From assembly GCA_963681505.1 (NCBI GenBank), contig OY811986.1:2079554-2143553 (forward strand): DNA of 64,000 bases, read 5' to 3'. The notes beneath the pieces were generated by a model. The model was not told the origin of the DNA. It ran no database searches and was given only the letters and a program-made list of their open reading frames with translations. Position 1 is the first letter of the stretch. Every line of letters starts with the position of its first letter. Of this stretch, positions 31,660 to 64,000 are shown piece by piece. A program made the position numbers and the translations under genes. Source of the DNA: Eunapius fragilis (Eukaryota; Porifera; Demospongiae; Spongillida; Spongillidae).

Positions 31660-34600
31660 ATATACATATTCATGTTTTAGTGTATAATATTGATGTATTA
31701 CTTATTAATGTTCGCGAGCTCGATGGTATGCCGTGTTGCAAATGCAACGGTTTAAACGCTCGCTGCAGCTCGTGCGAATGCGTGAAGCAGAATCGACAGT
31801 GTGTAAGTTGTCACGCTGGGAAACATGGTCGCTGCAGAAACACCGTGCTCAACAACCACGTCATGCCCCAGTTGGCCGCTGCTTCTTCTAGCCGGACGGT
31901 AGCCGCCGCGTTGCCTGAGCCTCTTACTGCTTCGTCACCATCTAGAGCTCAATCAACATCAACCTCCCAGTCGCCTACGAGCGCCCAGACGGCGCCCATC
32001 TCATCTCAGCTGTCACAGCAGCTATTCATTTCTAACCCACAGCAGCTGCCTCACCCGCGTCACAGGATACCTCGACGTAATGAATCACATGAGGATTTCT
32101 CCACCACTCATTCACAGCCGGAGGAGCAGCAGAGATCCCCCACGCACTTTTCTCAATCAACCACGAGTTCCCAGATCCCGGGAGTATCTAGAAAGCGGCG
32201 GAAGAAGCATTGTATTGTGGAAGGGTGTCCTGAACATATTGCTCCTTCCATGTGGAAAGCCCACATGACTCTCCATGTCCAGGGTGTATTTTCTGGGGAC
32301 GTGCCTAACTTTTGGCTGGAGGAGAATGATCTTTCCATCTGCCACCTATGCCATCAATTGGTTTCCAACAATCGGTTGTCCTCCCACCCAAGGAAATGTG
32401 CTGGTAGTGCTGTGGTTGCTCCGGTTCTTGACAGTGTGTTAGGGGATGTACCACACAACCTGGCTGAGATGAGCCTACCAACCTTTGATGACGTGTGCCT
32501 CCTTGACCAGCCCACCTTGCGCTTCATCCCATCAAAGTCCCGGCCTGCTTTTGCCCGGGTATTGTCATCTACTTTGAGAAGTGTTATCCTGGAGAACACA
32601 GAGGAGGCATGGCTGAAACTATTCATGCTTCCTAAATGTGTTCTGCCTTCACTTCGACGCAAGGGACGACATGACAAGCCACTGCCAGTGGATTCTCTCT
32701 GCAACATGTGGTCAGATGACAAACTGGGAGCCCTTTGGTCTTTGGCCAAGAGTCGGTCAGCCAATCATAATCATCCAGGAGGTGTGTCCATCAACAATCG
32801 GACAAAGGTCATTGACCAAGCTGTGTCATTAGGCAGATCTGGTATGTTTGGGAAAGCTTGCAGAGTCCTTCAGTCCAGCGGTATTGCCCCAAATAATGAG
32901 ACAACGTGGCATCTGTTGAAATCCAAACATCCCAGCTGTCCCACTCCAGTAGCTCCAGCGTCTGACTCTGCCCCTCTCACCCTCGAGCCAGATTTCAATA
33001 TCCTTTCTGTCCTACGTTCCTTCCCCAAGGACACTGCAGCTGGTCCTTCTGGTCTTCGAGTCCAACACCTGCTTGATGTGGCTAGTGTCCCACTTCCCAC
33101 ATCCATTTGCTCCTCCCTCAGGCAGTTGGTCAATATCCTGGCAGCTGGAAAGGTACCTACATCTGTGTCTAAGTTCTTGGCTGGAGGCTGCTTGATTGCC
33201 TTGAACAAAAACAAGGAGGGCTGCCCACCTGACATTAGGCCCATCGCAGTGGGGGAGACAATAAGGAGGCTGACTGGGAAGTGCATGTGTGCCTTGGTGA
33301 AGGACAAGGCTACTGAGTTCTTCCAACCCCTGCAACTCGGTGTGGCCTGTCGTGCAGGGGCAGAGAAGGTGGCCCATGCTCTCAGGGGATGCATTGAAGA
33401 GCACTGGATGGACGAGGACTTTGTTGTACTTAAGGTGGACATGAGGAACGCTTTTAATATTGTCTCCAGACAAGCAGTCCTTGATGAGTGTGCTACTTTT
33501 TTCCCTGAGTTGCTACCCTGGGTGTCTTGGTGTTATGGGACCCATCCTCTGCTATGGCACCCTCTTGGCCAGATCAGCTCTGAGTCTGGAGTGCAGCAGG
33601 GTGACCCTTTAGGTCCCTTACTGTTTGCACTAGTCCTCCAGAAGTTGGTATCTAGCCTGGACGCAGATGAGGAGTGTGCTGAAATCCTTCTCCAAGCTTG
33701 GTACCTTGATGATGGAGCTTTGGCTGGCACCCGCTCAGCTGTACTACGTGCCTTACATGTGATTGAGGAGTTGGGTCCTGCATTGGGCCTACATGTGAAC
33801 CTGGCCAAGTGTGAGATGTTCAGCAGGCAGGGTAACACATCATTCCCACCGGAGGTGAGGTGCTCACTCCTGCCTAATCTGGACATCCTGGGTGCTCCAA
33901 TTGGGGATTATCTACACTGTTCTAAGTTTATCGCTGGGAGGTGTGCTGAGTCCAGGAAGCTACTCTCCGGTCTAGTGGATGTTGCTGCAGTCGATCTCCA
34001 GGTAGCAGTTTCCTTATTGCGCATGTGTGGTAGCTTCTGCAGGATGGTCCACATAGCAAGGGTTACCCCACCAAGCCTGGCCACAGATGCTCTAAGGTCT
34101 TTTGATGAGGAGGTCAAGCAGTGCTTTGTAATGTGCTCCGCCATCAATGTTACCAATGATGCCTGGAGCCAGGCACAGCTAGGACTAAAATTTGGGGGTC
34201 TGGGTCTTCGCTCCCTCTCTCACCATGCTGCTGCAGCGTTCATTGCCTCCCTGTCATTCTCCGGCTTTGGCAAGGCTGATAATGTTCACCTAAAACAGGC
34301 AGTGGCAATGTTTAACACTCAGGTCTCCCCCTTTAATGCCATTACAGTCAGTTCTGCTCTGGAGTCTCCCATTCACCAGAAGGTCTTGTCAGGATTGATC
34401 CAAACCCAACATTTCCACATCTTGTTGGAATCCTCCTCTCCAGCTAACAGAGCTCGCCTCCTGTCAGTGGCTGCTCCTCATGCTTCCTCTTGGCTATCAG
34501 TGGTCCCTTCCCCTGGTTTGGGCTTGCACCTGGAATCGAATGAGTTCCAGATGGCTATTAGGTGGTGGCTGGGGTTAGATACTTCTGGTCGGTCCATGTG

Positions 34601-35330
34601 CCCATTCTGCCCCGATACTGCTCTTGATCCTCTTGGTCACCATGCTGTGACCTGCAGGCATGGGGGGGATGTGGTCACACGTCATAATCGTCTACGAGAT
34701 GAGGTATTTGACCTTTGTCGTCGTGCCCACCTAAGTGTGAGTGTGGAGAGAGGTCATGGCCTTACCAGAGACCTTGCCCACACCAGACCTGCTGACATCC
34801 TCATTGCTGGCTGGGACAGAGGCAAACCTGCGGCACTAGACCTGACCATTACCTCACCACTATGCTCTGTCATCTTGGGTGAATCATGTCACCAGGCTGG
34901 TGCGGCAGCCCTGGCAGCAGAGACCCGCAAGTTCCACTCCAATGGACCCAAGTGCCAAGAGTTGGGCTGGTCCTGCATCCCATTGGCAGTGGAGACTTAT
35001 GGCAATTGGGGCAAGCAGGCTCATGATACCTTCTCCAGGCTGGCATCCTTCCTAGCCATTCACCAGTCTTCCCCCAAGGCAGTAGTTGTGGCTGAAATTT
35101 ATGGCCGGTTGAATGTGGTCCTGGTTCGGTCCATTGCTAGAGCCATCCTGGCCAGGGAGCTTCCACCCTCCTAACTTGCTATTAGTAGTTTAATTGTGTA
35201 TGCATTTAAATAAGGTGTTTTTTGTGTGCAATAGTGCTTTTATTCTTAATAATAATGTTCATTACTTGTTAATATTCAAAACAACAATTCAAACATGAAA
35301 TGCTAAAAAATAATAATAATATAATAATTA
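31660..35330 (+). mobile_element. Intact-looking RLE-type non-LTR retrotransposon
   Basis: One long ORF (31728-35174) is followed by an AT-rich 3' UTR that ends near an A/T-rich tail of AATAATAATAATATAATAATT at about 35308-35328. No LTRs. The exact 5' boundary is not visible. A decayed 5S rDNA unit begins at 35511, downstream of 180 bp of unclassified sequence. Older fragments of the same family lie immediately upstream (31376) and at 36135. Confidence 0.75.
31728..35174 (+). CDS. Retrotransposon polyprotein: Cys-rich/ZnF, reverse transcriptase, CCHC and restriction-like endonuclease
   Basis: The ORF has no stop over 1148 codons from the ATG at 31728 (the frame is open slightly further upstream). 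The N-terminus has a compact Cys motif (CCKCNGLNARCSSCECV, then CVSCHAGKHGRC), a Ser/Pro/Gln-rich linker, and a C2H2-like finger (CIVEGCPEHIAPSMW, HMTLH, CHLCH, C). RT blocks: GPSGLRVQHLLD, LKVDMRNAFNIVSRQ, GVQQGDPLGPLLFALVLQ, active site YLDD (659-662), ILGAPIGD. The C-terminal block has CPFCPDTALDPLGHHAVTC (CCHC, about 958-976), GGDVVTRHNRLRDE and the RLE core RPADIL...GKPAALDLTITSP. Products of such elements nick DNA with the RLE and copy their RNA by target-primed reverse transcription. All catalytic motifs look intact, so it could be active or recently active. Confidence 0.9.
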   Translation: MPCCKCNGLNARCSSCECVKQNRQCVSCHAGKHGRCRNTVLNNHVMPQLAAASSSRTVAAALPEPLTASSPSRAQSTSTSQSPTSAQTAPISSQLSQQLFISNPQQLPHPRHRIPRRNESHEDFSTTHSQPEEQQRSPTHFSQSTTSSQIPGVSRKRRKKHCIVEGCPEHIAPSMWKAHMTLHVQGVFSGDVPNFWLEENDLSICHLCHQLVSNNRLSSHPRKCAGSAVVAPVLDSVLGDVPHNLAEMSLPTFDDVCLLDQPTLRFIPSKSRPAFARVLSSTLRSVILENTEEAWLKLFMLPKCVLPSLRRKGRHDKPLPVDSLCNMWSDDKLGALWSLAKSRSANHNHPGGVSINNRTKVIDQAVSLGRSGMFGKACRVLQSSGIAPNNETTWHLLKSKHPSCPTPVAPASDSAPLTLEPDFNILSVLRSFPKDTAAGPSGLRVQHLLDVASVPLPTSICSSLRQLVNILAAGKVPTSVSKFLAGGCLIALNKNKEGCPPDIRPIAVGETIRRLTGKCMCALVKDKATEFFQPLQLGVACRAGAEKVAHALRGCIEEHWMDEDFVVLKVDMRNAFNIVSRQAVLDECATFFPELLPWVSWCYGTHPLLWHPLGQISSESGVQQGDPLGPLLFALVLQKLVSSLDADEECAEILLQAWYLDDGALAGTRSAVLRALHVIEELGPALGLHVNLAKCEMFSRQGNTSFPPEVRCSLLPNLDILGAPIGDYLHCSKFIAGRCAESRKLLSGLVDVAAVDLQVAVSLLRMCGSFCRMVHIARVTPPSLATDALRSFDEEVKQCFVMCSAINVTNDAWSQAQLGLKFGGLGLRSLSHHAAAAFIASLSFSGFGKADNVHLKQAVAMFNTQVSPFNAITVSSALESPIHQKVLSGLIQTQHFHILLESSSPANRARLLSVAAPHASSWLSVVPSPGLGLHLESNEFQMAIRWWLGLDTSGRSMCPFCPDTALDPLGHHAVTCRHGGDVVTRHNRLRDEVFDLCRRAHLSVSVERGHGLTRDLAHTRPADILIAGWDRGKPAALDLTITSPLCSVILGESCHQAGAAALAAETRKFHSNGPKCQELGWSCIPLAVETYGNWGKQAHDTFSRLASFLAIHQSSPKAVVVAEIYGRLNVVLVRSIARAILARELPPS

Positions 35331-35731: not shown

Positions 35732-36029
35732 ACAAGTAAATAAAAACATTCTCTAACGAGAGAGTTGTTGGTATATAGGATTGACCAATGGTGGTGTAAA
35801 AAGCACGGAAACAAGAGTGACAGAAATTTTACTCGAAAATTGAAATTGGCCTATATTTAGCACATTACTCTCAGGCATGCGCTGTTATTTTGTGAGCGTG
35901 CTAAATATAGGCCAATTTCAATTTTCGAGTAAAATTTCTGTCACTCTTGTTTCCGTGCTTTTTACACCACCATTGGTCAATCCTATATACCAACAACTCT
36001 CTCGTTAGAGAATGTTTTTATTTACTTGT
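35732..36029. repeat. Perfect foldback A, 132-bp arms
   Basis: Arms 35732-35863 and 35898-36029 are exact reverse complements around a 34-bp loop. The outer end is ACAAGTAAATAAAAACATTC. The arms contain TATAGGATTGA, also present next to the hairpin at 40022-40035. A sibling with the same layout but different arm sequence is at 45360-45650. It is read here as the 3' terminal part of a larger minus-oriented element. Confidence 0.95.
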
Positions 36030-36134
36030 TTCATAGGTTTTTTTTCACCGTAGTCGATGAAATGTAGGAAGAGCACATAGAATTTGGACGATCCCCTTTA
36101 TTTCTTAATGCAATAACAAACAGAAAACATGCCA

Positions 36135-36480
36135 GCAATGACACAAAGTGCTCCGAGCTTGGGTGTGTGTGTGTACCTTTGGCAGTTGAGGTTTATGGAT
36201 GTTGGGGTCCTGAAGCACAGACAAACCTTTCTAGACTTGCAGCGCGCCTGGCTATTAGACCAAATTGTTGTAAGTCCCAGGCCACTTTGGCTCTCTATGG
36301 CAGGTTAAACTTGGTCCTAGTTAGAGCGAATGCCAGAGCTCTGCTGTCCCGTTCAATGGCAACTGGATGTTAGTCTCCTCACCTTCTCCGTTCCAGTGTA
36401 TTGTTTTTTGTTTAGTAAAATTGTGTAGCTTAAAACTGTAAATGTTGTATATGTAGTATCATTTTCAATAAATAACTTTA
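36135..36480 (+). pseudogene. 3'-terminal fragment of the RLE retrotransposon family with UTR
   Basis: Reads KCSELGCVCVPLAVEVYGCW, LSRLAARLAIRPNCCKSQAT and LYGRLNLVLVRANARALLSR, ending ATGC at stop 36371-36373. A 3' UTR with AATAAA at 36467-36472 and an AAT/AATTAT tail follows. It has the family C-terminus but belongs to a different subfamily from the intact copy. It is 5' truncated. Confidence 0.88.
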
Positions 36481-37032
36481 ATAATAATAATTATAATTAT
36501 ATGAATTTGTAGTATTAATTATTAGTTGTCCCCCTCGTCTCCTGCGGGGACGTCCTCCTCCCCGGCCTCCCCGCCATGCTGGGTTCTGCCAGGTTGGCAG
36601 TGGCCATGCAGGCCAGGGAGGGAGCACAGGCGGCGGTGGTAGCGGGGGCAGCGCTGGTGGTGCCGGCGGGGGTAGCGCTGGTGGTGCCGGCGGGGGTAGC
36701 GCTGGTGGTGCCGGCGGGGGCAGCGCTGGTTGTGCCGGTGGGGGCAGCGCTGGTGGTGCCGGCGGGGGTAGCGCTGGTGGTGCCGGCGGGGGCAGCGCTG
36801 GTGGTGCCGGCGGGGGTAGCGCTGGTGGTGCCGGCGGGGGCAGCGCTGGTGGTGCCGGTGGGGGTAGCGCTGCTGGTAGTGGTGGTGGGGGCAGTGCTGC
36901 TGGTGGTGGTAGGAGTGGCGGGGCTTCTGGAGGTGGCGGGGTGAAGGGGAGAGGAGTCGGAGGATTTATGTCATCCTCTTCCTCCTCCGACCCCTCTTGA
37001 TTAAAAAACCCCGTAAGGTCTTCTGCTGCCAT
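36478..37032 (-). CDS. Proline/alanine-rich repeat protein, hypothetical
   Basis: A 184-aa ORF with ATG at 37030-37032. The acidic N-terminus (MAAEDLTGFFNQEGSEEEED) is followed by about nine PPAPPALP octapeptides encoded by a 24-bp GC-rich tandem repeat (about 36640-36870), a WPAWPLPTWQNP segment, an RGGRGGGRPRRRRG basic/RGG-like patch, and a tail running into the neighbouring AT-rich repeat. A CATGTAG acceptor-like site precedes the ATG and a GTAAAA donor-like site lies near 37083, so it may be a downstream exon of the Helitron-like gene. No domain. Translation is unproven and the repeat alone could keep the frame open. Confidence 0.35.
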   Translation of the reverse strand: MAAEDLTGFFNQEGSEEEEDDINPPTPLPFTPPPPEAPPLLPPPAALPPPPLPAALPPPAPPALPPPAPPALPPPAPPALPPPAPPALPPPAPPALPPPAQPALPPPAPPALPPPAPPALPPPAPPALPPLPPPPVLPPWPAWPLPTWQNPAWRGGRGGGRPRRRRGGQLIINTTNSYNYNYYY

Positions 37033-37120
37033 CTACATGTACGTGACAGAGACAGAGAGTATGATTTAAAAATTTTTTACCTTATTCTTTTTTCAAGCCT
37101 TTGCTCTCTGAATCAGTTGT

Positions 37121-38375
37121 TTACTGAGAGCATTTAGCAACTTTAGTTCCTCTGGTATGGGCAAGCCCATTTAGAACACTTCTAGCTGGTATAGTATTCT
37201 TGTTTAGAAATGGTCGGCAGTACTGAAAAATGTATATTAGTTGTTCAGTGACACCATTCTGCAAAACATGGGCTTTCGTTCTTTGCCATGTGTCAGTTTC
37301 ATATTTTTCAAGGCTAAAGTTTACACAAGACACTTGTTTGCGCTTGCATAATCGTTCACATCTACAACATGCAAACTCTGCATCGTCATTGAACTTGGAT
37401 TGTAGCTCAGCTATAAGGTCAGCATGCGTAACTTTCAAGCCTCTCTCAATGCAGCCTAGACCAGATGATGAGTGGTCTTCACTAACTACGGGATGCTCAA
37501 CTCCATCCACACTAAACAAATCTGACAAATTCTCCTTCAAGCCCAGAAAAGGTATCAGCTCGTCAATACTTCCACTAGAAAGTGCTGAATCAATAGCCAA
37601 AATGTTCATGTGGCATTTGCGAGCTTTATAAAGCAGCCTAGTGAAAGGAAAGTGAGGTGAAGCTGCCCTAATAACTCGCAATGGACTAGAGCATTCTGGA
37701 AGCTCACAATTAATAGGATGCCCAAGCTGTTCAATAATCCCAGAATTCAATTTCAAAGTGATACCAGTATGAACATGACCACACCCTGAATCAAGATCAT
37801 CAAGCCCAGCTCGAAGATCTTCAATGGACATTTGGAACAGTGACTTTGTCCTCAACACTATTGCTACTTCTTCACTAGTGAGGTTGCGACACTCATTTGT
37901 ACATTTCCATTTCAAGGGGCGCATGGTAACCTTATCTCTGTCCCCTATCTCCTCTGACACTACACACCTACCATTGAGGTCTACTGGAATGGCCCCAAGT
38001 CATTTTGTGTAAGTGTACGAAGTATTTAAAAAGTAAGGTTCAGAGCCAGCAGTATGATACCTATGCCCTACTAAAATATCATTTTCTCCTATTTTCATTC
38101 TATTTATTTCACGGATAGTTTTTAGCAATGACCCTGCTTTTGCTCTTCGTACACTTAGTGCTTTAGAAACCAATGCCTCTGCCCCAATCTTATTTACTGC
38201 TGCATGGGCAGATCTAGTAACAACCTTTTGAGCTAGCAATGGATGAGACTTACAAAAGGCATCATTTACTTCACTTAGAAGCTCACTATCCCGAAGAATA
38301 GCTTTTTCAAGACCACCATTATATTCCACTAGTGCATGAGATTTGGGTTCATACAAGGAGTAGCTATATGGGAGA
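37121..38375 (-). pseudogene. Helitron-type protein, N-terminal (DUF6570-like) region, inactivated
   Basis: Minus strand from about 38375: EPKSHALVEYNGGLEKAILR...VSKALSVRRAKAGSLLKTIR...PYFLNTSYTYTK, an in-frame TGA at 38000-38002, then the same frame continues GAIPVDLNGRCVVSEEIGD, KWKCTNECRNLTSEEVA, HFPFTRLLYKARKC, CCRCERLCKRKQVSCVNFS, YCRPFLNKNTIPARSVLNGL. At about 37161 a frameshift separates this from PIPEELKLLNALSKQLIQRA in the next frame. The cysteine pairs and the IPARSVLNGL...PIPEEL...LSKQLIQRAKA string match my memory of the region just before the Helitron Rep domain. Rep and helicase parts are absent. It is likely joined by an intron to the repeat-rich 5' exon at 38691-39543 (donor GTATGT). 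Confidence 0.72.
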
Positions 38376-38597
38376 AGGATATGGTTGCAGTTATTGTCAT
38401 TTCACCTATAGTTCTCAGCCCTTGCAACTGTAATTATATTCATACAGTTGCAACACATGTACATGGCTAGACAGATAAGGAAGCCTTCAAATAAGGAAGC
38501 CTTTTTATACATCAGATTAAAACAATAGACACTACTACTGTACACAGTTGCATGCTTTACATGTGAAGTGAATGGTTTTGTGCAGATCCGTGCTGTA

Positions 38598-38674
38598 CAT
38601 AGTTGTGCGGGCCCTACTACCGCGTTTGGTCAGGTAGTAGGGTGACAAGCCCGACCAAACACCGCCCGACTATG
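38598..38674. other. Interleaved inverted repeats, possible RNA pseudoknot
   Basis: Stem A: CCCTACTACC (38612-38621) pairs with 38633-38642. Stem B: GTTTGGTC (38624-38631), inside the loop of A, pairs with 38653-38660 downstream. An outer stem CATAGT...CGGG pairs with CCCGACTATG (38665-38674). The order A-B-A'-B' enclosed by C-C' is an H-type pseudoknot inside a stem. It lies in the presumed intron of the Helitron-like gene. Function is unknown. Confidence 0.6.
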
Positions 38675-38690
38675 CTCTACAAATGTTGCA

Positions 38691-39543
38691 TGCACAGCTT
38701 TTTAATTTTAATACAACATGCCATAACATACTTTTGGGTGGTAGTGGTAGTGCTGTGACCCCTGCGGTACCGCGTCCTCTCGGAAGCACATTTAGCCAAT
38801 CGGACAGCGGGGTCATTCCAATACCGACTCCTTTTAGATGCTTTAATGGCAGCTGAATTGTCCTCGTATTTCTGCCTGTTAGCAGCGCGGTTTCCCTCGA
38901 GGTCCTCTTCATATCGCCGCCTTTTAGCAGCATGGTTCTCCTAGAGGTCCTCTTCATATCGCCGCCTTTTAGCAGCACGGTTCTCCTCGAGGTCCTCTTC
39001 ATATCGCCGCCTTTTAGCAGCACGGTTCTCCTCGAGGTCCTCTTCGTATCGCCGCTTTTTAGCAGCACGGTTCTCCTCGAGGTTCTCTTCATATCGCCGC
39101 CTTTTAGCAGCACGGTTCTCCTCGAGGTCCTCTTCATATAGCCGCCTTTTAGCAGCACGGTTCTCTTCGAGGTCCTCTTCATATCGCCGCCATTTAGCAG
39201 CACGGCTCTCCTCGAGGTCCTCTTCATATCGCCACCTTTTAGCAGATCGCTTAGATTCAATATCTGCGTTGTAGCTGTCGCGTACAGAGGCCTTCTTCTT
39301 TTCGGGATCGGCCTTGTAGCTGTCGCGTACAGAGGCCTTCTTCTTTTCGGGATCGGCCTTGTAGCTGTCGCGTACAGAGGCCTTCTTCTTTTCGGGATCG
39401 GCCTTGTAGCTGTCGCGTACAGAGGCCTTCTTCTTTTCGGGATCGGCCTTGTAGAGCGCTCGGGCTTTAGCTTTGTTCTCGTCTTGCTTTTGGAGGTATT
39501 CCGCTCGTTGCTTAGATCTCTTCTTTTGATTACGCGAAGGCAT
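38691..39543 (-). pseudogene. Charged-repeat 5' exon of the Helitron-like gene
   Basis: ATG at 39541-39543 starts MPSRNQKKRSKQRAEYLQKQ. Four DSYKADPEKKKASVR repeats and about nine (R/K)RYEEDLEENRAAK repeats follow. A GAG-to-TAG change at 38942-38944 stops the frame (every sister repeat has CTCGAG on the plus strand, here CTAGAG). Beyond it the frame stays open: NHAAKRRRYEEDLEGNRAAN, NDPAVRLAKCASERTRY, to a GTATGT donor-like site near 38733, or TAG at 38691. Such KADPEKKKAS repeat leaders are known on sponge and cnidarian Helitron-type and related transposon proteins. They are highly basic and acidic, likely coiled or disordered. A decayed homologue is at 45770-46202. Confidence 0.65.
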
Positions 39544-40056
39544 TTTTGAAAAACAACTTCACTAGCCAAAGCAACAACTAAACTGCGATAGGAACACCAG
39601 ATATTTTTAGTGCAGGTTAGAGTATTTATACTGCCTAAAATTATTAATAAATATCTATTACATACATTATTAAATAGAACTTGATATGTGACTATATGAC
39701 ATGTAAGGATAACGTGCCGGTAAATTTGGAAGCGATTGGTACTATTCCCGTCCTTCTAAACCGTTCCTAGCTCGAGTTATACCTTCCTAAGAAGAAGAAG
39801 ACGACGACGACGACGACGATGGAGAATTATTTTAGGACTGGGCACGAGAAACAGGAAATTGTTTGTTTCTCTATAACCACACCGTTTTATGACACGGAAC
39901 AAACGTAGAACTGTAGATCGTTGTGCTCCCATTCCGCCGCGATAAAGAGATAAGCGATCCGTTTCTCAGTTGTCCCTCCAGAGGCTTGTGAAGTTTTATT
40001 AATGACATTCATCAACCCTCAATCAATCCTATATTGAACCTGCTGCCGCAGGTTCA
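39544..40056 (-). promoter_or_regulatory. 5' leader of Helentron-like block A with terminal hairpin
   Basis: Non-coding on the gene strand. It is alignable with 46203-46840 of block B: shared landmarks are (GAA/GAC)n near 39793, GGACTGGGCACGAG, TTGTTTGTTTCTCTA, AATGACATTCAT and TCCTATAT. The terminal hairpin at 40035-40056 has a 9-bp stem and 4-nt loop. Block B has a hairpin of identical dimensions but different sequence. Confidence 0.6.
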
Positions 40057-40190
40057 GATTTTATATTAACAAATACATTACAAACAAAAGGACTAATATA
40101 CAATAAGTTCTACGGATCATCCACAGATGTTCCTGCTCGAGACAGGAGTGCCCGTGCGTTGGCTCGCATCAAAGTCATCGCAATGGAAAT
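40057..40190 (-). pseudogene. 3' end of an RLE retrotransposon next to 5S spacer
   Basis: The minus strand reads TLMRANARALLSRAGTSVDDP and stop (about 40119-40186), then an AT-rich 3' UTR. It is cut on its 5' side, where the sequence passes directly into degenerate 5S spacer (GCAATGGAAATTGTG..., 40191 onward). This is a 5'-truncated insertion in the edge of the 5S array, in the same orientation as the 5S genes. Confidence 0.8.
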
Positions 40191-40372
40191 TGTGTTGTTG
40201 ATGAGTCGAATAAAACACTAAACACCAAACGAAATTGAAATAATAAAATAAAACAGCAACAAACTTAAAAGTCTACAATATCAAATTACTGCAATGAAAA
40301 ATTGTGATGTAGATGAGTGGAGTAATATAAAACGCTATACACCAACGAACGAAAGTAAAATAAAAAGTAAAA

Positions 40373-40490
40373 GCCTACAACACCGGATGTTCCCAGGCGG
40401 TCACCTATCCGAGTACTGATCCGGCCCGACGCTGTTTAACTTCGGTGATCGGACGGGAAACGGTGCATTCAGCGTGGTATGGTGGTAGGC
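40373..40490 (-). rRNA. 5S rRNA: 5S rRNA, gene 1 (degenerate)
   Basis: Array-edge copy with several changes from the array consensus (CACCTATCCGAG, TGTTTAAC, GGGAAACGG, GGTGGTAGGC); probably a pseudogene. L-C leader. Confidence 0.8.
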
Positions 40491-40686
40491 ATCCACCTAA
40501 TGCTGTGTATCTCTTTTATGTGCTGCTGCAACGTTCATGATGCGGGATCAACCGAGCCATAATAGTTTGCGTGTCACGGAAGCAAAATAATAGTCAAATT
40601 ACGGCAATGAAAAGTTGGGATGTAGATGAGTGGAATAAAACGCTATTATAATACACCAACGAACGAAAGTAAAATAAAAAGTAAAA

Positions 40687-40803
40687 GCCTACAACACGGA
40701 TGTTCCCAGGCGGTCACCCATCCAAGTACTGATCCGGCCCGACGCTGCTTAACTTCAGTGATCGGACGGGAACCGATGCATTCAGCGTGGTATGGTCGTA
40801 GGC
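40687..40803 (-). rRNA. 5S rRNA: 5S rRNA, gene 2 (variant)
   Basis: One-base deletion near the 3' end (ACACGGATG) plus CTTCAGTG and AACCGATGC changes. L-G leader. Confidence 0.85.
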
Positions 40804-40999
40804 ATCCACGTAATGCTCTGTATCTCTTTTATGTGCTGCTGCAAGGTTCATGATGCGGGATCAACCAAGCCATGTTAGTTTGCGTGTGATGGAAGCAAAA
40901 TTAAAGTAATTTTCAAATTACTGCAATGAAAAATTGTGATGTAGAGGAGTGGAATAAAACGCTATACAACAACGAACGAAAGTAAAATAAAAAGTAAAA

Positions 41000-41117
41000 G
41001 CCTACAACACCGGATGTTCCCAGGCGGTCACCCATCCAAGTACTGATCCGGCCCGACGCTGCTTAACTTCGGTGATCGGACGGGAACCGGTGCATTCAGC
41101 GTGGTATGGTCGTAGGC
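41000..41117 (-). rRNA. 5S rRNA: 5S rRNA, gene 3
   Basis: 118-nt consensus copy; A-box (AAGTTAAGCAGCGTCGG) and C-box (TGGGTGACCGCCTGGGAA) internal promoter elements present. L-G leader; opens a 4-gene repeat. Confidence 0.96.
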
Positions 41118-41313
41118 ATCCACGTAATGCTCTGTATCTCTTTTATGTGCTGCTGCAACGTTCATGATGCGGGATCAACCGAGCCATAATAGTTTGCGTG
41201 TCACGGAAGCAAAATAATAGTCAAATTACGGCAATGAAAAGTTGGGATGTAGATGAGTGGAATAAAACGCTATGATAATACACCAACGAACGAAAGTAAA
41301 GTAAAAAGTAAAA

Positions 41314-41431
41314 GCCTACAACACCGGATGTTCCCAGGCGGTCACCCATCCAAGTACTGATCCGGCCCGACGCTGCTTAACTTCGGTGATCGGACGGGAA
41401 CCGGTGCATTCAGCGTGGTATGGTCGTAGGC
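41314..41431 (-). rRNA. 5S rRNA: 5S rRNA, gene 4
   Basis: Consensus body, L-D leader, second position of the 4-gene repeat. Confidence 0.96.
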
Positions 41432-41621
41432 ATCCTCCTGACGCTGTGTATCTTTTTTATGTGCTGCTACAACGTTCATGATGCGGGATCAACCGAGCCA
41501 TAATAGTTTGCGTGTCACGGACGCAAAATAATAGTCAAATTACGGCAATGAAAAGTTGTGATGTAGATGATTGGAGTAAAACGCTATACACCAACGAACG
41601 AAAGTAAAATAAAAAGTAAAA

Positions 41622-41739
41622 GCCTATAACACTGGATGTTCCCAGGCGGTCACCCATCCAAGTACTGATCCGGCCCGACGCTGCTTAACTTCGGTGATCG
41701 GACGGGAACCGGTGCATTCAGCGTGGTATGGTCGTAGGC
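41622..41739 (-). rRNA. 5S rRNA: 5S rRNA, gene 5
   Basis: 3' end reads TATAACACTGG instead of TACAACACCGG, a variant confined to the third position of the 4-gene repeat. L-C leader. Confidence 0.95.
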
Positions 41740-41935
41740 ATCCACCTAATGCTGTGTATCTCTTTTATGTGCTGCTGCAACGTTCATGATGCGGGATCAA
41801 CCGAGCCATTATAGTTTGCGTGTCACGGAAGCAAAATAATAGTCATATTACGGCAATGAAAAGTTGTGATGTAGATGATTGGAGTAAAACGCTATGATAA
41901 TACACCAACGAACGAAAGTAAAATAAAAAGCAAAA

Positions 41936-42053
41936 GCCTACAACACCGGATGTTCCCAGGGGGTCACCCATCCAAGTACTGATCCGGCCCGACGCTGCTT
42001 AACTTCGGTGATCGGACGGGAACCGGTGCATTCAGCGTGGTATGGTCGTAGGC
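41936..42053 (-). rRNA. 5S rRNA: 5S rRNA, gene 6
   Basis: One change (CAGGGGGTCAC) in the C-box region. L-T leader, fourth position. Confidence 0.94.
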
Positions 42054-42255
42054 ATCCATCTAATGCTGTGTATCTCTTTTATGTGCTGCTGCAACGTTCA
42101 TGATGCGGGATCAACAAAGCCATATTAGTTTGCGTGTGATGGAAGCAAAATTAAAGTAATTTTCAAATTACTGCAATGAAAAATTGTGATGTAGATGAGT
42201 GGAATAAAACGCTATTATAATACACCAACGAACGAAAGTAAAATAAAAAGTAAAA

Positions 42256-42373
42256 GCCTACAACACCGGATGTTCCCAGGCGGTCACCCATCCAAGTACT
42301 GATCCGGCCCGACGCTGCTTAACTTCGGTGATCGGACGGGAACCGGTGCATTCAGCGTGGTATGGTCGTAGGC
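42256..42373 (-). rRNA. 5S rRNA: 5S rRNA, gene 7
   Basis: Consensus body, L-G leader. Confidence 0.96.
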
Positions 42374-42569
42374 ATCCACGTAATGCTCTGTATCTCTTTT
42401 ATGTGCTGCTGCAACGTTCATGATGCGGGATCAACCGAGCCATAATAGTTTGCGTGTCACGGAAGCAAAATAATAGTCAAATTACGGCAATGAAAAGTTG
42501 GGATGTAGATGAGTGGAATAAACCGCTATGATAATACACCAACGAACGAAAGTAAAGTAAAAAGTAAAA

Positions 42570-42687
42570 GCCTACAACACCGGATGTTCCCAGGCGGTCA
42601 CCCATCCAAGTACTGATCCGGCCCGACGCTGCTTAACTTCGGTGATCGGACGGGAACCGGTGCATTCAGCGTGGTATGGTCGTAGGC
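42570..42687 (-). rRNA. 5S rRNA: 5S rRNA, gene 8
   Basis: Consensus body, L-C leader with CAAGGTTC. Confidence 0.96.
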
Positions 42688-42883
42688 ATCCACCTAATGC
42701 TGTGTATCTCTTTTATGTGCTGCTGCAAGGTTCATGATGCGGGATCAACCGAGCCATAATAGTTTGCGTGTCACGGAAGCAAAATAATAGTCAAATTACG
42801 GCAATGAAAAGTTGGGATGTAGATGAGTGGAATAAAACGCTATGATAATACACCAACGAACGAAAGTAAAGTAAAAAGTAAAA

Positions 42884-43001
42884 GCCTACAACACCGGATG
42901 TTCCCAGGCGGTCACCCATCCAAGTACTGATCCGGCCCGACGCTGCTTAACTTCGGTGATCGGACGGGAACCGGTGCATTCAGCGTGGTATGGTCGTAGG
43001 C
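42884..43001 (-). rRNA. 5S rRNA: 5S rRNA, gene 9
   Basis: Consensus body, L-G leader; opens a 4-gene repeat. Confidence 0.96.
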
Positions 43002-43197
43002 ATCCACGTAATGCTCTGTATCTCTTTTATGTGCTGCTGCAACGTTCATGATGCGGGATCAACCGAGCCATAATAGTTTGCGTGTCACGGAAGCAAAATA
43101 ATAGTCAAATTACGGCAATGAAAAGTTGGGATGTAGATGAGTGGAATAAAACGCTATGATAATACACCAACGAACGAAAGTAAAGTAAAAAGTAAAA

Positions 43198-43315
43198 GCC
43201 TACAACACCGGATGTTCCCAGGCGGTCACCCATCCAAGTACTGATCCGGCCCGACGCTGCTTAACTTCGGTGATCGGACGGGAACCGGTGCATTCAGCGT
43301 GGTATGGTCGTAGGC
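43198..43315 (-). rRNA. 5S rRNA: 5S rRNA, gene 10
   Basis: Consensus body, L-D leader. Confidence 0.96.
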
Positions 43316-43505
43316 ATCCTCCTGACGCTGTGTATCTTTTTTATGTGCTGCTACAACGTTCATGATGCGGGATCAACCGAGCCATAATAGTTTGCGTGTC
43401 ACGGACGCAAAATAATAGTCAAATTACGGCAATGAAAAGTTGTGATGTAGATGATTGGAGTAAAACGCTATACACCAACGAACGAAAGTAAAATAAAAAG
43501 TAAAA

Positions 43506-43623
43506 GCCTATAACACTGGATGTTCCCAGGCGGTCACCCATCCAAGTACTGATCCGGCCCGACGCTGCTTAACTTCGGTGATCGGACGGGAACCGGTGCA
43601 TTCAGCGTGGTATGGTCGTAGGC
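43506..43623 (-). rRNA. 5S rRNA: 5S rRNA, gene 11
   Basis: Third-position TATAACACTGG variant, L-C leader. Confidence 0.95.
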
Positions 43624-43819
43624 ATCCACCTAATGCTGTGTATCTCTTTTATGTGCTGCTGCAACGTTCATGATGCGGGATCAACCGAGCCATAATAGTT
43701 TGCGTGTCACGGAAGCAAAATAATAGTCAAATTACGGCAATGAAAAGTTGTGATGTAGATGATTGGAGTAAAACGCTATGATAATACACCAACGAACGAA
43801 AGTAAAATAAAAAGCAAAA

Positions 43820-43937
43820 GCCTACAACACCGGATGTTCCCAGGCGGTCACCCATCCAAGTACTGATCCGGCCCGACGCTGCTTAACTTCGGTGATCGGA
43901 CGGGAACCGGTGCATTCAGCGTGGTATGGTCGTAGGC
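43820..43937 (-). rRNA. 5S rRNA: 5S rRNA, gene 12
   Basis: Consensus body, L-T leader. Confidence 0.96.
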
Positions 43938-44139
43938 ATCCATCTAATGCTGTGTATCTCTTTTATGTGCTGCTGCAACGTTCATGATGCGGGATCAACA
44001 AAGCCATATTAGTTTGCGTGTGATGGAAGCAAAATTAAAGTAATTTTCAAATTACTGCAATGAAAAATTGTGATGTAGATGAGTGGAATAAAACGCTATT
44101 ATAATACACCAACGAACGAAAGTAAAATAAAAAGTAAAA

Positions 44140-44257
44140 GCCTACAACACCGGATGTTCCCAGGCGGTCACCCATCCAAGTACTGATCCGGCCCGACGCT
44201 GCTTAACTTCGGTGATCGGACGGGAACCGGTGCATTCAGCGTGGTATGGTCGTAGGC
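44140..44257 (-). rRNA. 5S rRNA: 5S rRNA, gene 13
   Basis: Consensus body, L-G leader; opens a 4-gene repeat exactly 1256 bp after gene 9. Confidence 0.96.
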
Positions 44258-44453
44258 ATCCACGTAATGCTCTGTATCTCTTTTATGTGCTGCTGCAACG
44301 TTCATGATGCGGGATCAACCGAGCCATAATAGTTTGCGTGTCACGGAAGCAAAATAATAGTCAAATTACGGCAATGAAAAGTTGGGATGTAGATGAGTGG
44401 AATAAAACGCTATGATAATACACCAACGAACGAAAGTAAAGTAAAAAGTAAAA

Positions 44454-44571
44454 GCCTACAACACCGGATGTTCCCAGGCGGTCACCCATCCAAGTACTGA
44501 TCCGGCCCGACGCTGCTTAACTTCGGTGATCGGACGGGAACCGGTGCATTCAGCGTGGTATGGTCGTAGGC
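44454..44571 (-). rRNA. 5S rRNA: 5S rRNA, gene 14
   Basis: Consensus body, L-D leader. Confidence 0.96.
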
Positions 44572-44761
44572 ATCCTCCTGACGCTGTGTATCTTTTTTAT
44601 GTGCTGCTACAACGTTCATGATGCGGGATCAACCGAGCCATAATAGTTTGCGTGTCACGGACGCAAAATAATAGTCAAATTACGGCAATGAAAAGTTGTG
44701 ATGTAGATGATTGGAGTAAAACGCTATACACCAACGAACGAAAGTAAAATAAAAAGTAAAA

Positions 44762-44879
44762 GCCTATAACACTGGATGTTCCCAGGCGGTCACCCATCCA
44801 AGTACTGATCCGGCCCGACGCTGCTTAACTTCGGTGATCGGACGGGAACCGGTGCATTCAGCGTGGTATGGTCGTAGGC
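44762..44879 (-). rRNA. 5S rRNA: 5S rRNA, gene 15
   Basis: Third-position TATAACACTGG variant, L-C leader. Confidence 0.95.
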
Positions 44880-45075
44880 ATCCACCTAATGCTGTGTATC
44901 TCTTTTATGTGCTGCTGCAACGTTCATGATGCGGGATCAACCGAGCCATTATAGTTTGCGTGTCACGGAAGCAAAATAATAGTCAAATTACGGCAATGAA
45001 AAGTTGTGATGTAGATGATTGGAGTAAAACGCTATGATAATACACCAACGAACGAAAGTAAAATAAAAAGCAAAA

Positions 45076-45193
45076 GCCTACAACACCGGATGTTCCCAGG
45101 CGGTCACCCATCCAAGTACTGATCCGGCCCGACGCTGCTTAACTTCGGTGATCGGACGGGAACCGGTGCATTCAGCGTGGTATGGTCGTAGGC
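45076..45193 (-). rRNA. 5S rRNA: 5S rRNA, gene 16
   Basis: Consensus body, L-T leader; last gene before the Helentron-like insertion in its upstream spacer. Confidence 0.96.
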
Positions 45194-45359
45194 ATCCATC
45201 TAATGCTGTGTATCTCTTTTATGTGCTGCTGCAACGTTCATGATGCGGGATCAACAAAGCCATATTAGTTTGCGTGTGATGGAAGCAAAATTAAAGTAAT
45301 TTTCAAATTACTGCAATGAAAAATTGTGATGTAGATGAGTGGAATAAAACGCTATTATA

Positions 45360-45650
45360 ACAAGTAAATAAAAACATTCTCTATGAGAAAGTTGGTGGCA
45401 TATAGGATTTGAAGGCAATGGTGGTGTAAAAAGGAAGGAAACAAGGGTCTAGTAATAAGGAAAAATGGAATAGTCCTATATTTAGCACACGAACAACATA
45501 CTATATCCTACATATAGAAATGTGCTAAATATAGGACTATTCCATTTTTCCTTATTACTAGACCCTTGTTTCCTTCCTTTTTACACCACCATTGCCTTCA
45601 AATCCTATATGCCACCAACTTTCTCATAGAGAATGTTTTTATTTACTTGT
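45360..45650. repeat. Perfect foldback B, 129-bp arms
   Basis: Arms 45360-45488 and 45522-45650 are exact reverse complements around a 33-bp loop. Outer end ACAAGTAAATAAAAACATTC and inner TATATTTAGCAC are shared with foldback A (35732), but much of the intervening arm sequence differs between the two. The arms carry TATAGGATTTGA, the same form found beside the hairpin at this block's other end. Confidence 0.95.
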
Positions 45651-45769
45651 TTCATTGATTTTTATTCATACCCGATTATGAGCCGTATAGCATGTTAAGT
45701 AATCCATCTTGATATGAGAACGACATACCATTGAGTGACCTTAACTCTTTTCGCCGAGCGAGATGCACG

Positions 45770-45966
45770 TTCAGGACTATGGCAATATCGCTATCTTTTT
45801 TCAGGATCTGCTCGATACCTTGCACGTCGAGAGGTCCGTTCCTTTTCAGGATCTGAGGGGGCTTTTAAGGGGCGGCCGAAATAGAAGAGAGGTTATTAAT
45901 TGTCGCCCCAGCGCGATCGAACCCACAAACGCATTTTGTATCGGGCCAGAAGCAGACAGCACCCTC

Positions 45967-45997
<31 letters not shown>

Positions 45998-46202
45998 TAC
46001 TAATCGCATCTCGATACCTTGCGCGTCGAGAGATCCGTTTCTTTTCAGGCTCTGCTCGATAGTTTTCACGTTTGAGAGGCCCGCTTCTTTTCAGGCTCTG
46101 CTTTGTAGTTCCGCTCGGGCTGAATCTAATACGTCGTCTCTAGTTTTGAGGTACTATGCTCGTCGTTTGGCTTTCTTCTTATCCTGACGTGCATGAAGGC
46201 AT
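45770..46202 (-). pseudogene. Decayed homologue of the charged-repeat exon
   Basis: ATG at 46200-46202 gives MPSCTSG then a stop. Shifted frames read ENYRAEPEKKRISRRARYRD, alignable with the DSYKADPEKKKASVRD repeats of block A. A C homopolymer of about 28 bp (45969-45997) interrupts it. No product is expected. Confidence 0.6.
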
Positions 46203-46840
46203 TTTGAGAAAAAAAAACTTCACTAAGTTACAAAGAGCGTCAAACCTAAACGATCGAATAACAAGAATGATTATAGTACGCACGTGCACGTTATTAAAAA
46301 TACATAACCGCCAAAGTTAATTACCACTACGTGTAGTGCCCAGACCGTACACATTTGATGTATACTGCTAGTACTTCGTATAAAGAGCGACGTAGGACCT
46401 ATCCGAGTCGTGTCAGTGCAGTAAGCTATACGTGATTTGCTAACACAACCACCGATAAATGTCATGTAGCCTCGAGACGTTTTGACCACAGAAGCGAAAA
46501 TGCCAGTGAATTCTGAAGCCATTGGTGTGATTTTCATTTCTTAAAAGTGTTCCTATCCCGAGTTATGCGTGGTCAAGAACAAGAACAAGAAGAAGAAGAA
46601 GAAGAACGAGAAATACGTGGGACTGGGTACGAGTTTCAAAAATTGTTTTGTTCTCTACAACCACGCGGTTTTGTGACATCAAACAAACACGAAACTGCTT
46701 GTTGTTGCCTTCTTGTACGACGACGATAACAAGGTAAGCCATCCGCTCGTCGGGAGTCTTGTTAGAAGCGGGTCGCGTTTTTTTAATGACATTCATAATC
46801 GGGGTCAAATCCTATATGAGAGTTACTAACGTAACTCTCG
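46203..46840 (-). promoter_or_regulatory. 5' leader and terminal hairpin of block B
   Basis: Alignable with 39544-40056. It contains (GAA)n at about 46577-46605, GGGACTGGGTACGAG, TTGTTTTGTTCTCTA, AATGACATTCAT and TCCTATAT, then the 22-nt hairpin. Short reading frames through the GAA run are not thought to be coding. Confidence 0.5.
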
Positions 46841-46872
46841 ATACACCAACGAACGAAAGTAAAATAAAAAGT

Positions 46873-46876
46873 AAAA
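46873..46876 (-). terminator. Pol III T-tract terminator (representative)
   Basis: TTTT immediately follows the 3' end of 5S gene 17 on the minus strand. The same TTTTACTTTTT or TTTTGCTTTTT context follows nearly every 5S gene (TTTTAATTTTT at genes 28 and 61). Confidence 0.85.
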
Positions 46877-46994
46877 GCCTACAACACCGGATGTTCCCAG
46901 GCGGTCACCCATCCAAGTACTGATCCGGCCCGACGCTGCTTAACTTCGGTGATCGGACGGGAACCGGTGCATTCAGCGTGGTATGGTCGTAGGC
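46877..46994 (-). rRNA. 5S rRNA: 5S rRNA, gene 17
   Basis: Consensus body, L-G leader; first gene right of block B. Confidence 0.96.
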
Positions 46995-62153: not shown

Positions 62154-64000
62154 TGCACCACTGAACGAATGCAGAAGCATATGACTGGGGCATTTGTCAG
62201 TCCTAACGGCATTACATTAAATTCAAGATGCCCCTCACGAGTGGGAAATGCTGTCTTTGCTCGGTCAGCCTCTTCCATTTCTACCTGCCAATATCCCGAA
62301 GCCAAATCTAAAGTTGTGAAATACTGTGATCCGGCCAGGGCCTCCAATGTTTCATCGATGCGAGGTAAAGGGTAAGCATCTCTCTGGGTCATGCTATTAA
62401 CTTTTCTGAAGTCTACACAAAAGCGCCACGATCCGTCTTTTTTTCTTGATCATCACAATTGGGGATGACCATGGACTACTGCTTTCCCTTATCACACCGT
62501 ATTGGAGCATCTTCTCAACTTCTGCCTTCACTGTATCTTGAAGCATATGAGGTATCCTTCTCAATGGTTCCCGAACTGGTGGGCCATTTGTTACAATAGT
62601 ATGCTTGACCTTTGATGTCCGACCAGTTGGACTGCCCTCAGTGGCACAGAGTCTCCGAAACTCTCCTATCAATTTCTTCAAGTCTCGTTTTTGGGAGTGG
62701 GTAAGATCTGCCCCTGTCAAATCGACTTTGGGCATCTCAGTGCTCTGTGATTCACAGGAATATTTGTCAATACTCATTATGCAGTGGCCCAAGCTGAAGT
62801 CCGCAACTCGCATGCCTCGGTACAGTGTCACTTCTTTGGGTGTAATGTTGGTGATTTGGACATTCACTTCATTACTACCGCCAACAGTGTCCAGGCTCCT
62901 AGCAATCAGCAACCCACTCGAGTTCCTATGGTTGGGCTCTACCAATCCCTCCTTTCCTGTTAACAAGCTAGAGTGCTCTACCCTTCCCTTTACCAACATC
63001 CCAGATCTTGCCGGTATTTGGATAGTTTCTGCAATGCTAACCGTGAATATACCTTCATGGATTGGTTGTACCACCCCCGCGCTCCCTTGGCTAGGTTTGC
63101 TGGCGAAAGACAACGTATTTCTTGCGCAATCAAGCACCGCTCCATGACAAGACAAAAAATCAATTCCTAGTAAGCAGTCCACAGTAAGCTTCCTAGCTAC
63201 AATGAATACATGTGAAGTACAGACATTGTTCACGTTAACCTGAAGCTTCACGCTACCCAGCACATCTAATGGGAGACCGTTTGCTCCCACCGTGAGAGGA
63301 GCCGCCTTAGTGATGTCCGCGCGGGCGCTGGTGGATAAAATATCATGACTGACGACTGATACGGCAGCACCCGAATTTATCAAAAAGTGAACCGGTCGAC
63401 CCCCGAGCAGCCCGCGTGCACACATCGTGGTGTAACTAAGATTACAACCACATACCTGAAATGGTGCCTTATTCCATTCGCCGTCCTCGCGGACTGATTC
63501 ATCAATTTCCGTGTCATTTCCTGTTCGCCGTTGACCCCGTCCTTGCACTTGACTAGCGGATGCAAAGGGACAGTGACGTCGAATGTGGCCTTCTCTGTTG
63601 CAGCTATAGCAGCGATAGTTTGCCGTCGCTCGGCGTCCAGATCCGAATCGCAGCTCCAATGATTCCATACGACGCAGTACTTGGTCCAACTTCTCCTGCA
63701 GCTCGAGCTCGCTCTTTTGACCATGACCCTTCACTGGTGTCTCCTCCGCTCGCAATGCCTGTTCTTGCTGTGTTTCGACGGTCTGGAAACCAAGGGCGCG
63801 CTCAATTTCTATCGCACTTTTTACTGCGCCTTCCATCGTGGTCGGGCTACCACGCAGCAGCAGCATCTGCCTCGTTATTTCAGGGAGTAATCCAGTGACA
63901 AAACGTCCTAACAAGACGCTAGATTCGTTGGCATCCTCTCCCGGGTAGGCTTCAGTAAACAGCTTTCTAAGGTCCGCGTCAAAGTACCTTACAGACTCTT
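62154..64000 (-). pseudogene. Ty3-type LTR retrotransposon gag-pol, truncated
   Basis: The minus-strand frame is open to the window edge: gag-like GRFVTGLLPEITRQMLLLRG, zinc knuckle CYSCNREGHIRRHC (CX2CX4HX4C), then a retropepsin-like FLINSGAAVSVVSHDIL in which Asn replaces the catalytic Asp of D(S/T)GA, then the RT start [15 protein letters not shown] one-base shift in an A-run near 62449 moves the frame to [32 protein letters not shown] and [11 protein letters not shown], where RT homology stops at about 62187. RT core, RNase H, integrase and the 3' LTR are missing; about 33 bp of filler separates it from 5S spacer. Broken and probably immobile. The rest of gag lies beyond 64000. Confidence 0.88.

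What the first reader, a model, noticed from the sequence alone, without database searches (positions are those of the whole stretch)
35732..46840. Helentron-like family living in 5S rDNA with foldback and hairpin ends
Seen: two blocks (35732-40057 and 45360-46840) share a perfect foldback of 132/129-bp arms at one end, a 22-nt hairpin (9-bp stem, 4-nt loop) at the other, a TATAGGATT motif beside both ends, and remnants of a charged-repeat/Helitron-type N-terminal gene on the same strand. Block B sits in one 5S spacer, and sister spacers give the empty site: no target duplication, insertion between T and T in gene orientation. Known: Helentron/Helitron2 elements insert at TT without duplication and carry asymmetric inverted repeats. 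Inference: this is a Helentron-like lineage with an unusual long-foldback 3' end that uses or tolerates 5S arrays.
Basis: partly seen in the sequence, partly recalled or inferred. Interest (0 to 1): 0.82.

Follow-up and report, generated by a model that had tools for sequence, protein, structure and literature searches.

The report
Helitron transposons with giant hairpin ends
The two blocks are short members of an abundant family of rolling-circle jumping genes whose tail is a perfect 130-base-pair hairpin that appears to mark where copying stops; one copy happened to land in a 5S ribosomal RNA array, which is not a special home.

Summary
Blocks A (35733-40058) and B (45361-46841) have a 5' end of TC plus a 9-bp/4-nt hairpin and a 12-14-nt inverted motif, and a 3' end that is a perfect foldback with ~130-nt arms. 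They are non-autonomous members of a non-canonical Helitron group. Two full copies (11.9 and ~10.7 kb) carry the same ends and a 1,995-codon open frame; DUF6570, Helitron-type Rep, Pif1 and OTU were found in the one scanned. The 21-nt foldback tip occurs 3,527 times exactly. Two inferences fail: the target is A|T, not T|T (45 of 45 5' flanks, 50 of 50 3' flanks), and no 5S DNA was found in the held flanks of other copies. New: the two arms of a copy evolve together (mean 3.7% apart, against 22% between copies) but drift apart in the most diverged copies. In family B the loop never flips (105:0). A natural experiment suggests polarity: a B copy nested in a transposase frame was re-copied as a 7.3-kb composite from the OUTER 5' hairpin to the INNER foldback, at a new A|T site. 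The foldback thus appears to serve as the 3' end. New variant of a known kind.

The parts
35733..40058 (-). Block A: non-autonomous, internally deleted element; 5' end (TC + hairpin) at 40058, 3' foldback end at 35733; 4326 nt
35733..36028 (-). 3' foldback of A, arms 100% complementary, 34-nt loop
40035..40058 (-). 5' end of A: TC, then TGAACCTGC-ggca-GCAGGTTCA hairpin
38941..39543 (-). 200-aa charged-repeat frame (N-terminal gene remnant); no Pfam hit
37121..37960 (-). 279-aa remnant matching the Rep-helicase-OTU frame of a full copy from about codon 133 on; no Pfam hit; the Rep and helicase parts are deleted in A
45361..46841 (-). Block B: 1481-nt non-autonomous element inserted in a 5S spacer at A|T without target duplication
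45361..45649 (-). 3' foldback of B, arms 100% complementary; loop possibly inverted relative to the nearest sampled family
46818..46841 (-). 5' end of B: TC, then GAGAGTTAC-gtta-GTAACTCTC hairpin; hairpin plus motif occurs 288 times exactly in the genome
45075..45193 (-). 5S rRNA gene on one side of block B
46876..46994 (-). 5S rRNA gene on the other side of block B

Best explanation
Blocks A and B are non-autonomous copies of a non-canonical Helitron (rolling-circle, Rep/Pif1/OTU) group. SHOWN from sequence: the 5' end is TC plus a 9-bp hairpin plus an asymmetric inverted repeat; the 3' end carries the same repeat inverted, a short hairpin and ACTTG; the last ~130 nt are present a second time in inverted orientation, giving a perfect foldback; insertion is between A and T without target duplication; full copies with an open Rep-Hel-OTU frame exist; a nested case exists as a second copy that runs from the outer 5' end to the inner foldback. 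INFERRED: the Rep nicks at the 5' hairpin, the strand is copied out 5'->3', and the foldback in the single strand is the signal that ends copying and is cut at ACTTG|T. INFERRED with less certainty: while the single strand is folded, one arm serves as template to correct the other, so the arms stay identical in active lineages and drift apart only after insertion.
For: Full copies with both ends and a 1,995-codon open frame (stop to stop): C2:13898179-13910107 (11,929 nt) and one on C8 (~10.7 kb). Pfam on the first: DUF6570, Helitron_like_N, PIF1, OTU. A|T: 45 of 45 distinct 5' flanks have A before T(C); 50 of 50 distinct 3' flanks begin with T (which removes one misread row from the 51). Empty sites: 5S spacer 80/80 without gap and a Rep-frame site, 200 aligned, 99.5%, no gap. 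Three 5' stems of the same 9-bp/4-nt shape: B is unlike the others, A and L049 differ at 2 of 9 pairs, both with changes on both sides. Polarity: L052:447-7783 is 100% identical over 7337 nt to L051:598-7934, starts at the outer 5' hairpin and ends at the nested foldback, at a new A|T site. Arm co-evolution over 19 distinct foldbacks: own arms 3.7% apart, inner-inner 22.5%, outer-outer 22.4%; 375 concordant against 107 discordant departures. An 8-nt insertion (L102) and a substitution inside family B (L094, L097) are each present in both arms.
Against: No transposition was observed; termination at the foldback rests on one composite. The most diverged copies (L100; L008:3973-4281) have arms 19% and 21-38% apart, the latter depending on the alignment, so homogenisation is not continuous and selection on active copies could mimic it. 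Ten of the sampled foldbacks were chosen because both tips were exact, which favours well-kept arms.
Confidence: 0.8

Rival explanations
1. The arms stay identical only through selection for pairing (compensatory mutation), with no arm-to-arm copying.
For: The most diverged copies have lost arm identity; a terminator hairpin would be selected in Helitrons (Helraiser 3' hairpin, PMC4778049, passages seen).
Against: About 22% divergence between copies, and an 8-nt insertion, are present in both arms; a 130-bp stem should tolerate single mismatches, so this many double changes are hard to get by selection alone (inference).
Confidence: 0.25
2. Ordinary chromosomal gene conversion or cruciform repair between close inverted repeats keeps the arms identical, unrelated to transposition.
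For: Nearby perfect inverted repeats are known substrates for conversion and inversion (recalled, no call); B's loop may be inverted relative to its nearest sampled relative.
Against: The most diverged sampled copies have lost arm identity, and family B shows 105 standard and 0 flipped loops, so resident copies neither stay identical nor invert often.
Confidence: 0.25
3. A Helentron in the strict sense that inserts at T|T and favours 5S arrays.
For: ATIR/subTIR-like motif and hairpins; block B is in a 5S spacer.
Against: A|T in 45/45 and 50/50 flanks; no endonuclease reported in 3 Rep frames scanned; 5S sequence only at the window's own places.
Confidence: 0.03
4. A cut-and-paste foldback element (MULE/Galileo type) that merely carries Helitron fragments.
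For: Long foldback.
Against: The foldback is at one end only; no target duplication at two checked sites; the three long frames scanned have Rep and Pif1 domains and no DDE domain was reported.
Confidence: 0.02
5. Parvovirus-like rolling-hairpin copying in which the terminal hairpin is inverted (flip/flop) at each round.
For: Terminal hairpin; B's loop aligns inverted to L093 (1 of 2000 shuffles as good; direct orientation 0.77).
Against: 105:0 loop orientation within B. Three pairs of non-B loops also align inverted at p 0.004-0.008 although they align far better directly, so the inversion signal is weaker than it looks.
Confidence: 0.05

Closest known systems
Helitron2 (Bao and Jurka 2013, PMC3627910; passages seen)
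   Same: 5' hairpin, short asymmetric terminal inverted repeats, a 3' repeat upstream of a 3' hairpin, T at the 5' end; no target duplication in the Chlamydomonas Helitron-1N1 type
   Different: Target A|T rather than TTTT|T/C; the ATIR lies just inside the 5' hairpin instead of forming it; 3' repeat 38-40 nt from the end instead of 20-30; the 3' end is doubled into a ~130-nt-arm perfect foldback; OTU domain in the same frame as Rep-helicase
Proto-Helentron of Phytophthora infestans (PMC4067079; section 11 read)
   Same: Rep-helicase without endonuclease, insertion between A and T, no target duplication
   Different: Ends described as 5'TT and 3'CTAG; a foldback is not mentioned in that section
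Helentron/HINE/DINE-1 (PMC4067079, passages seen; oyster Cg_HINE, PMC7492417, passages seen)
   Same: Subterminal inverted repeats (38-60 bp from the 3' end in the mite), a 3' palindrome, many non-autonomous derivatives; OTU in some
   Different: T|T target and endonuclease in Helentrons; 3' palindromes of 5-10 bp (mite) against ~130 bp here
Non-canonical Fusarium Helitrons FoHeli1/2 (PMC5148889, passages seen)
   Same: Start with TC, hairpins and ATIRs at both ends, insertion between TNAT and T
   Different: End in ATTTT; short hairpins only in the passages seen
Helraiser/Helitron1 (PMC4778049, passages seen; PDB 7lcc)
   Same: 5'-TC, A|T target; 3' hairpin as terminator, read-through and novel 3' ends
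   Different: Rep region only remotely similar (23.6 bits; its helicase part brings the whole frame to 92.2 bits) against 906.5 bits for a Helitron1-like frame in this genome; no CTRR end; 19-bp palindrome instead of a ~130-bp foldback

Membership tests
Helitron superfamily (rolling-circle) | Rep (HUH, two-tyrosine) plus Pif1-type helicase | tested here: met
   Pfam Helitron_like_N and PIF1 in 3 frames; HYH motif; YVTGY aligned to Helraiser YLFKY
Helitron superfamily (rolling-circle) | No target-site duplication, empty site exact | tested here: met
   Two sites
Helitron superfamily (rolling-circle) | Replicative, one-directional copying from the 5' end | tested here: inconclusive
   One composite, L051 to L052, fits; no transposition assayed
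Helitron1 (canonical) | 5'-TC and A|T target | tested here: met
   45/45 A|T, of which 44 TC and 1 TT; 50/50 T after the 3' end
Helitron1 (canonical) | CTRR-3' end | tested here: not met
   Ends ACTTG
Helitron1 (canonical) | Rep close to Helitron1 Rep | tested here: not met
   23.6 bits against 906.5 bits
Helitron2 | 5' hairpin, ATIRs, 3' hairpin | tested here: met
   but the ATIR does not form the 5' stem
Helitron2 | RepHel in the Helitron2 clade | not tested
   No reference proteins at hand for a tree
Helentron | Endonuclease domain fused to RepHel | tested here: not met
   Not reported in 3 frames scanned with Pfam
Helentron | T|T target | tested here: not met
   Under the T|T parse the next base is T in only 12 of 50
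Proto-Helentron | Helentron-like Rep, no endonuclease, A|T target | tested here: inconclusive
   A|T and no endonuclease found; tree position not tested
5S-specialised element | Recurrent insertion in 5S arrays | tested here: not met
   5S unit only in the window and its own two loci; none in the short flanks of L053-L102
Foldback/DDE element | DDE transposase and target duplication | tested here: not met

The most novel reading that the evidence does not exclude
A eukaryotic rolling-circle transposon whose 3' end is a long terminal hairpin that is re-templated at transposition: the folded single strand repairs one arm from the other, so terminator and end sequence are renewed as a unit (a hairpin-telomere-like device), perhaps with a rare inversion of the loop when a lineage is founded.
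Probability: 0.35. Interest if true: 0.75.

Novelty: new variant of a known kind. Interest (0 to 1): 0.6.

Why it matters
How Helitrons recognise and end at their 3' terminus is poorly understood; in the reconstructed bat element a 19-bp palindrome acts as terminator (PMC4778049). Here one genome holds thousands of copies of a 3' tip, many of them in ~130-bp hairpins, with related families, diverged and young copies, and one composite that suggests where copying stopped. That makes the terminator question, and whether single-stranded intermediates heal their own ends, testable by sequence survey and simple biochemistry. It also combines a Helitron2-like end structure with a canonical A|T target.

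Tried and rejected
T|T target: rejected. 5S targeting: rejected. Flip/flop of the hairpin at each round: rejected by 105 standard and 0 flipped; the single hit is, by its place and first letters, the outer arm of the copy at C2:7814462 read from its flank. DDE foldback element: rejected. Independent new foldbacks in each family: unlikely, because loops align directly between the non-B families (20 of 21 pairs at p 0.05 or better, L098 with L101 not) and the sequence before the inner arm ends in GAAA where orientation is known from the 5' end; in the ten loci the orientation was itself taken from that motif. Papers: the library is open-access only; the rows listed (10-20 per search, often of hundreds or thousands) showed no title or abstract start that describes a long foldback at a Helitron end. 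The HELIANO paper is not held. My first palindrome script flooded its output with a simple repeat of L043; only its BLAST rows and foldback rows were used. The orientation-blind table was superseded. L019 had no automatic orientation and was kept as read; it gave one false 3' flank, removed. The 51 foldbacks come from 50 places (L001 and L053 are one). My notes state the inverted loop of B more firmly than allows. The host species was not identified.
Full report
WHAT IS THERE. The window is a stretch of contig 16 (2,079,554-2,143,553) of an unnamed 219-Mb genome in 24 contigs and carries a 5S array with 65 minus-strand genes that reach the Rfam gathering score. Both foldbacks are real and perfect. 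Read in gene orientation (minus strand), each block starts with TC, a 9-bp stem with a 4-nt loop, then ATATAGGATT(T)GA, and ends with the same motif inverted, a small hairpin and TTTTTATTTACTTG. The last ~130 nt are also present inverted just inside, which makes the foldback. Three 5' stems were seen. B's is unlike the others; A's and L049's differ at 2 of 9 pairs, each changed on both sides; all have the same shape. This argues for function.

HOW COMMON. Of 40 candidates scored for B (the best of 3,411), 39 match the full 1-1481 query and one a part. The 21-nt tip occurs exactly 3,527 times (1,755 + 1,772), the reversed control 0 times. Of the first 100 listed tips, 66 form 33 foldback-type pairs 252-286 nt apart and 34 have no exact partner. 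If these are typical, the genome has roughly 1,200 (pairs only) to 2,400 (every lone tip a damaged foldback) such ends; this is extrapolated from the first 4.9 Mb of one contig. The B-type 5' hairpin plus motif occurs 288 times exactly.

FULL COPIES. C2:13898179-13910107 has both ends and a 1,995-codon open frame, stop to stop (11,929 nt). A second copy on C8 is ~10.7 kb with a 1,995-codon frame. Pfam reports DUF6570, Helitron_like_N, PIF1 and OTU in the C2 frame and in the L047 frame; the L049 frame has an OTU match below its cut-off. No endonuclease domain was reported in these three. The B-type 5' end is shared with relatives that have long frames: L047 begins with the same hairpin. The same genome also holds a Helitron1-like Rep frame (L050, 906.5 bits to Helraiser), whereas the Rep region here scores 23.6 bits and the whole frame, mainly its helicase, 92.2 bits. 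It is therefore a non-canonical Helitron.

TARGET. Of 45 distinct 5' flanks held, 45 have A before T; the next base is C in 44 and T in 1. Of 50 distinct 3' flanks, 50 begin with T, and the second base is A 28, T 12, G 7, C 3 (one search had one misread row more). Two empty sites agree: the 5S spacer (80/80) and the Rep frame of L051 against L047 (200 aligned, 99.5%, no gap). 5S sequence was found only in the window and its own two loci; loci L053-L102 gave no hit, but their flanks are only about 12 to 60 nt long.

A NATURAL EXPERIMENT. In L051 a B copy sits inside the Rep frame of a relative with a long frame. In L052, on another contig, a 7.3-kb unit begins at the OUTER 5' hairpin and ends at the NESTED B foldback. 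It is 100% identical to L051 over 7,337 nt, and its flanks differ on both sides, with A before TC and T after ACTTG. The simplest reading is that copying began at the outer 5' end and stopped at the first foldback met. This matches the terminator role shown for the short 3' hairpin of Helraiser (PMC4778049, passages seen). It is one case.

ARMS AND LOOP. Among 19 distinct foldbacks (51 read, 50 places) the two arms of one copy differ by 3.7% on average, while inner arms differ by 22.5% and outer arms by 22.4% between copies. Departures from the majority are concordant in 375 cases and discordant in 107. In the tree the two arms of one copy generally fall together or in the same small group. 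An 8-nt insertion in L102 and a substitution in L094/L097 are each present in both arms. The most diverged copies have arms 19% (L100) and 21-38% (L008:3973-4281, by alignment) apart. Identity thus seems to be renewed in active lineages and lost after insertion. The loop is not flipped within B (105:0), which excludes flip/flop at every round. The loop of B aligns inverted, not direct, to L093, its nearest relative by arms among those compared (85% identity): 1 of 2000 shuffles as good, against 0.77 for the direct orientation. Against L014, L098 and L008b the inverted p is 0.02-0.05, against the A variants 0.05 and 0.12, and against L101 there is no signal. As a control against this, three pairs of non-B loops also align inverted at p 0.004-0.008 while aligning far better directly. 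I take one inversion in B's ancestry as plausible, not proven.

LIMITS. Foldback statistics rest on 50 places, mostly best hits; ten came from the tip list of contig 1 and were chosen because both tips were exact, which favours well-preserved arms. No Rep tree with named references could be made. The host was not identified. No experiment shows activity.

Noticed in passing
L050:1624-7058 (C9:2927000-2936900): A Helraiser-like (Helitron1) Rep frame, overlapped by a PIF1 helicase frame downstream, in the same genome (906.5 bits to PDB 7lcc).
   Followed up: partly
L042:1025-1297 (minus strand of the full element): A DEAD/DEAH helicase fragment (Pfam PF00270, 30.6 bits) in antisense inside the element's 3' region; possibly a captured host gene piece.
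   Followed up: partly
L051 and L052: A nested B copy and the 5' part of its host element form a new 7.3-kb composite unit at a second place.
   Followed up: yes
L002 upstream of 1502 and L018 beside 4049: A partial copy of the element's own 5' hairpin lies directly upstream of the 5' end; perhaps a trace of an aborted or nested event.
   Followed up: no
L065/L085 flanks (C5:240928): A direct repeat of about 15 nt in both flanks of one B copy, possibly older than the insertion.
   Followed up: no
window 36478-37032 (minus strand): A 184-aa frame with an acidic start and a Pro/Ala-rich repeat (MAAEDLTGFF...), with a counterpart in the full C2 copy.
   Followed up: no
window 9558-11690 and 31680-35174: Two frames with reverse transcriptase domains (RVT_1), likely retroelements.
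   Followed up: no
window 62397-63914: A frame with weak aspartyl-protease matches next to the end of the 5S array.
   Followed up: no
window 678-2726: A dynamin-family GTPase frame.
   Followed up: no
window 45968-45997: A run of 30 C inside block B; near-identical copies are 1480-1482 nt long, so its length may vary.
   Followed up: no
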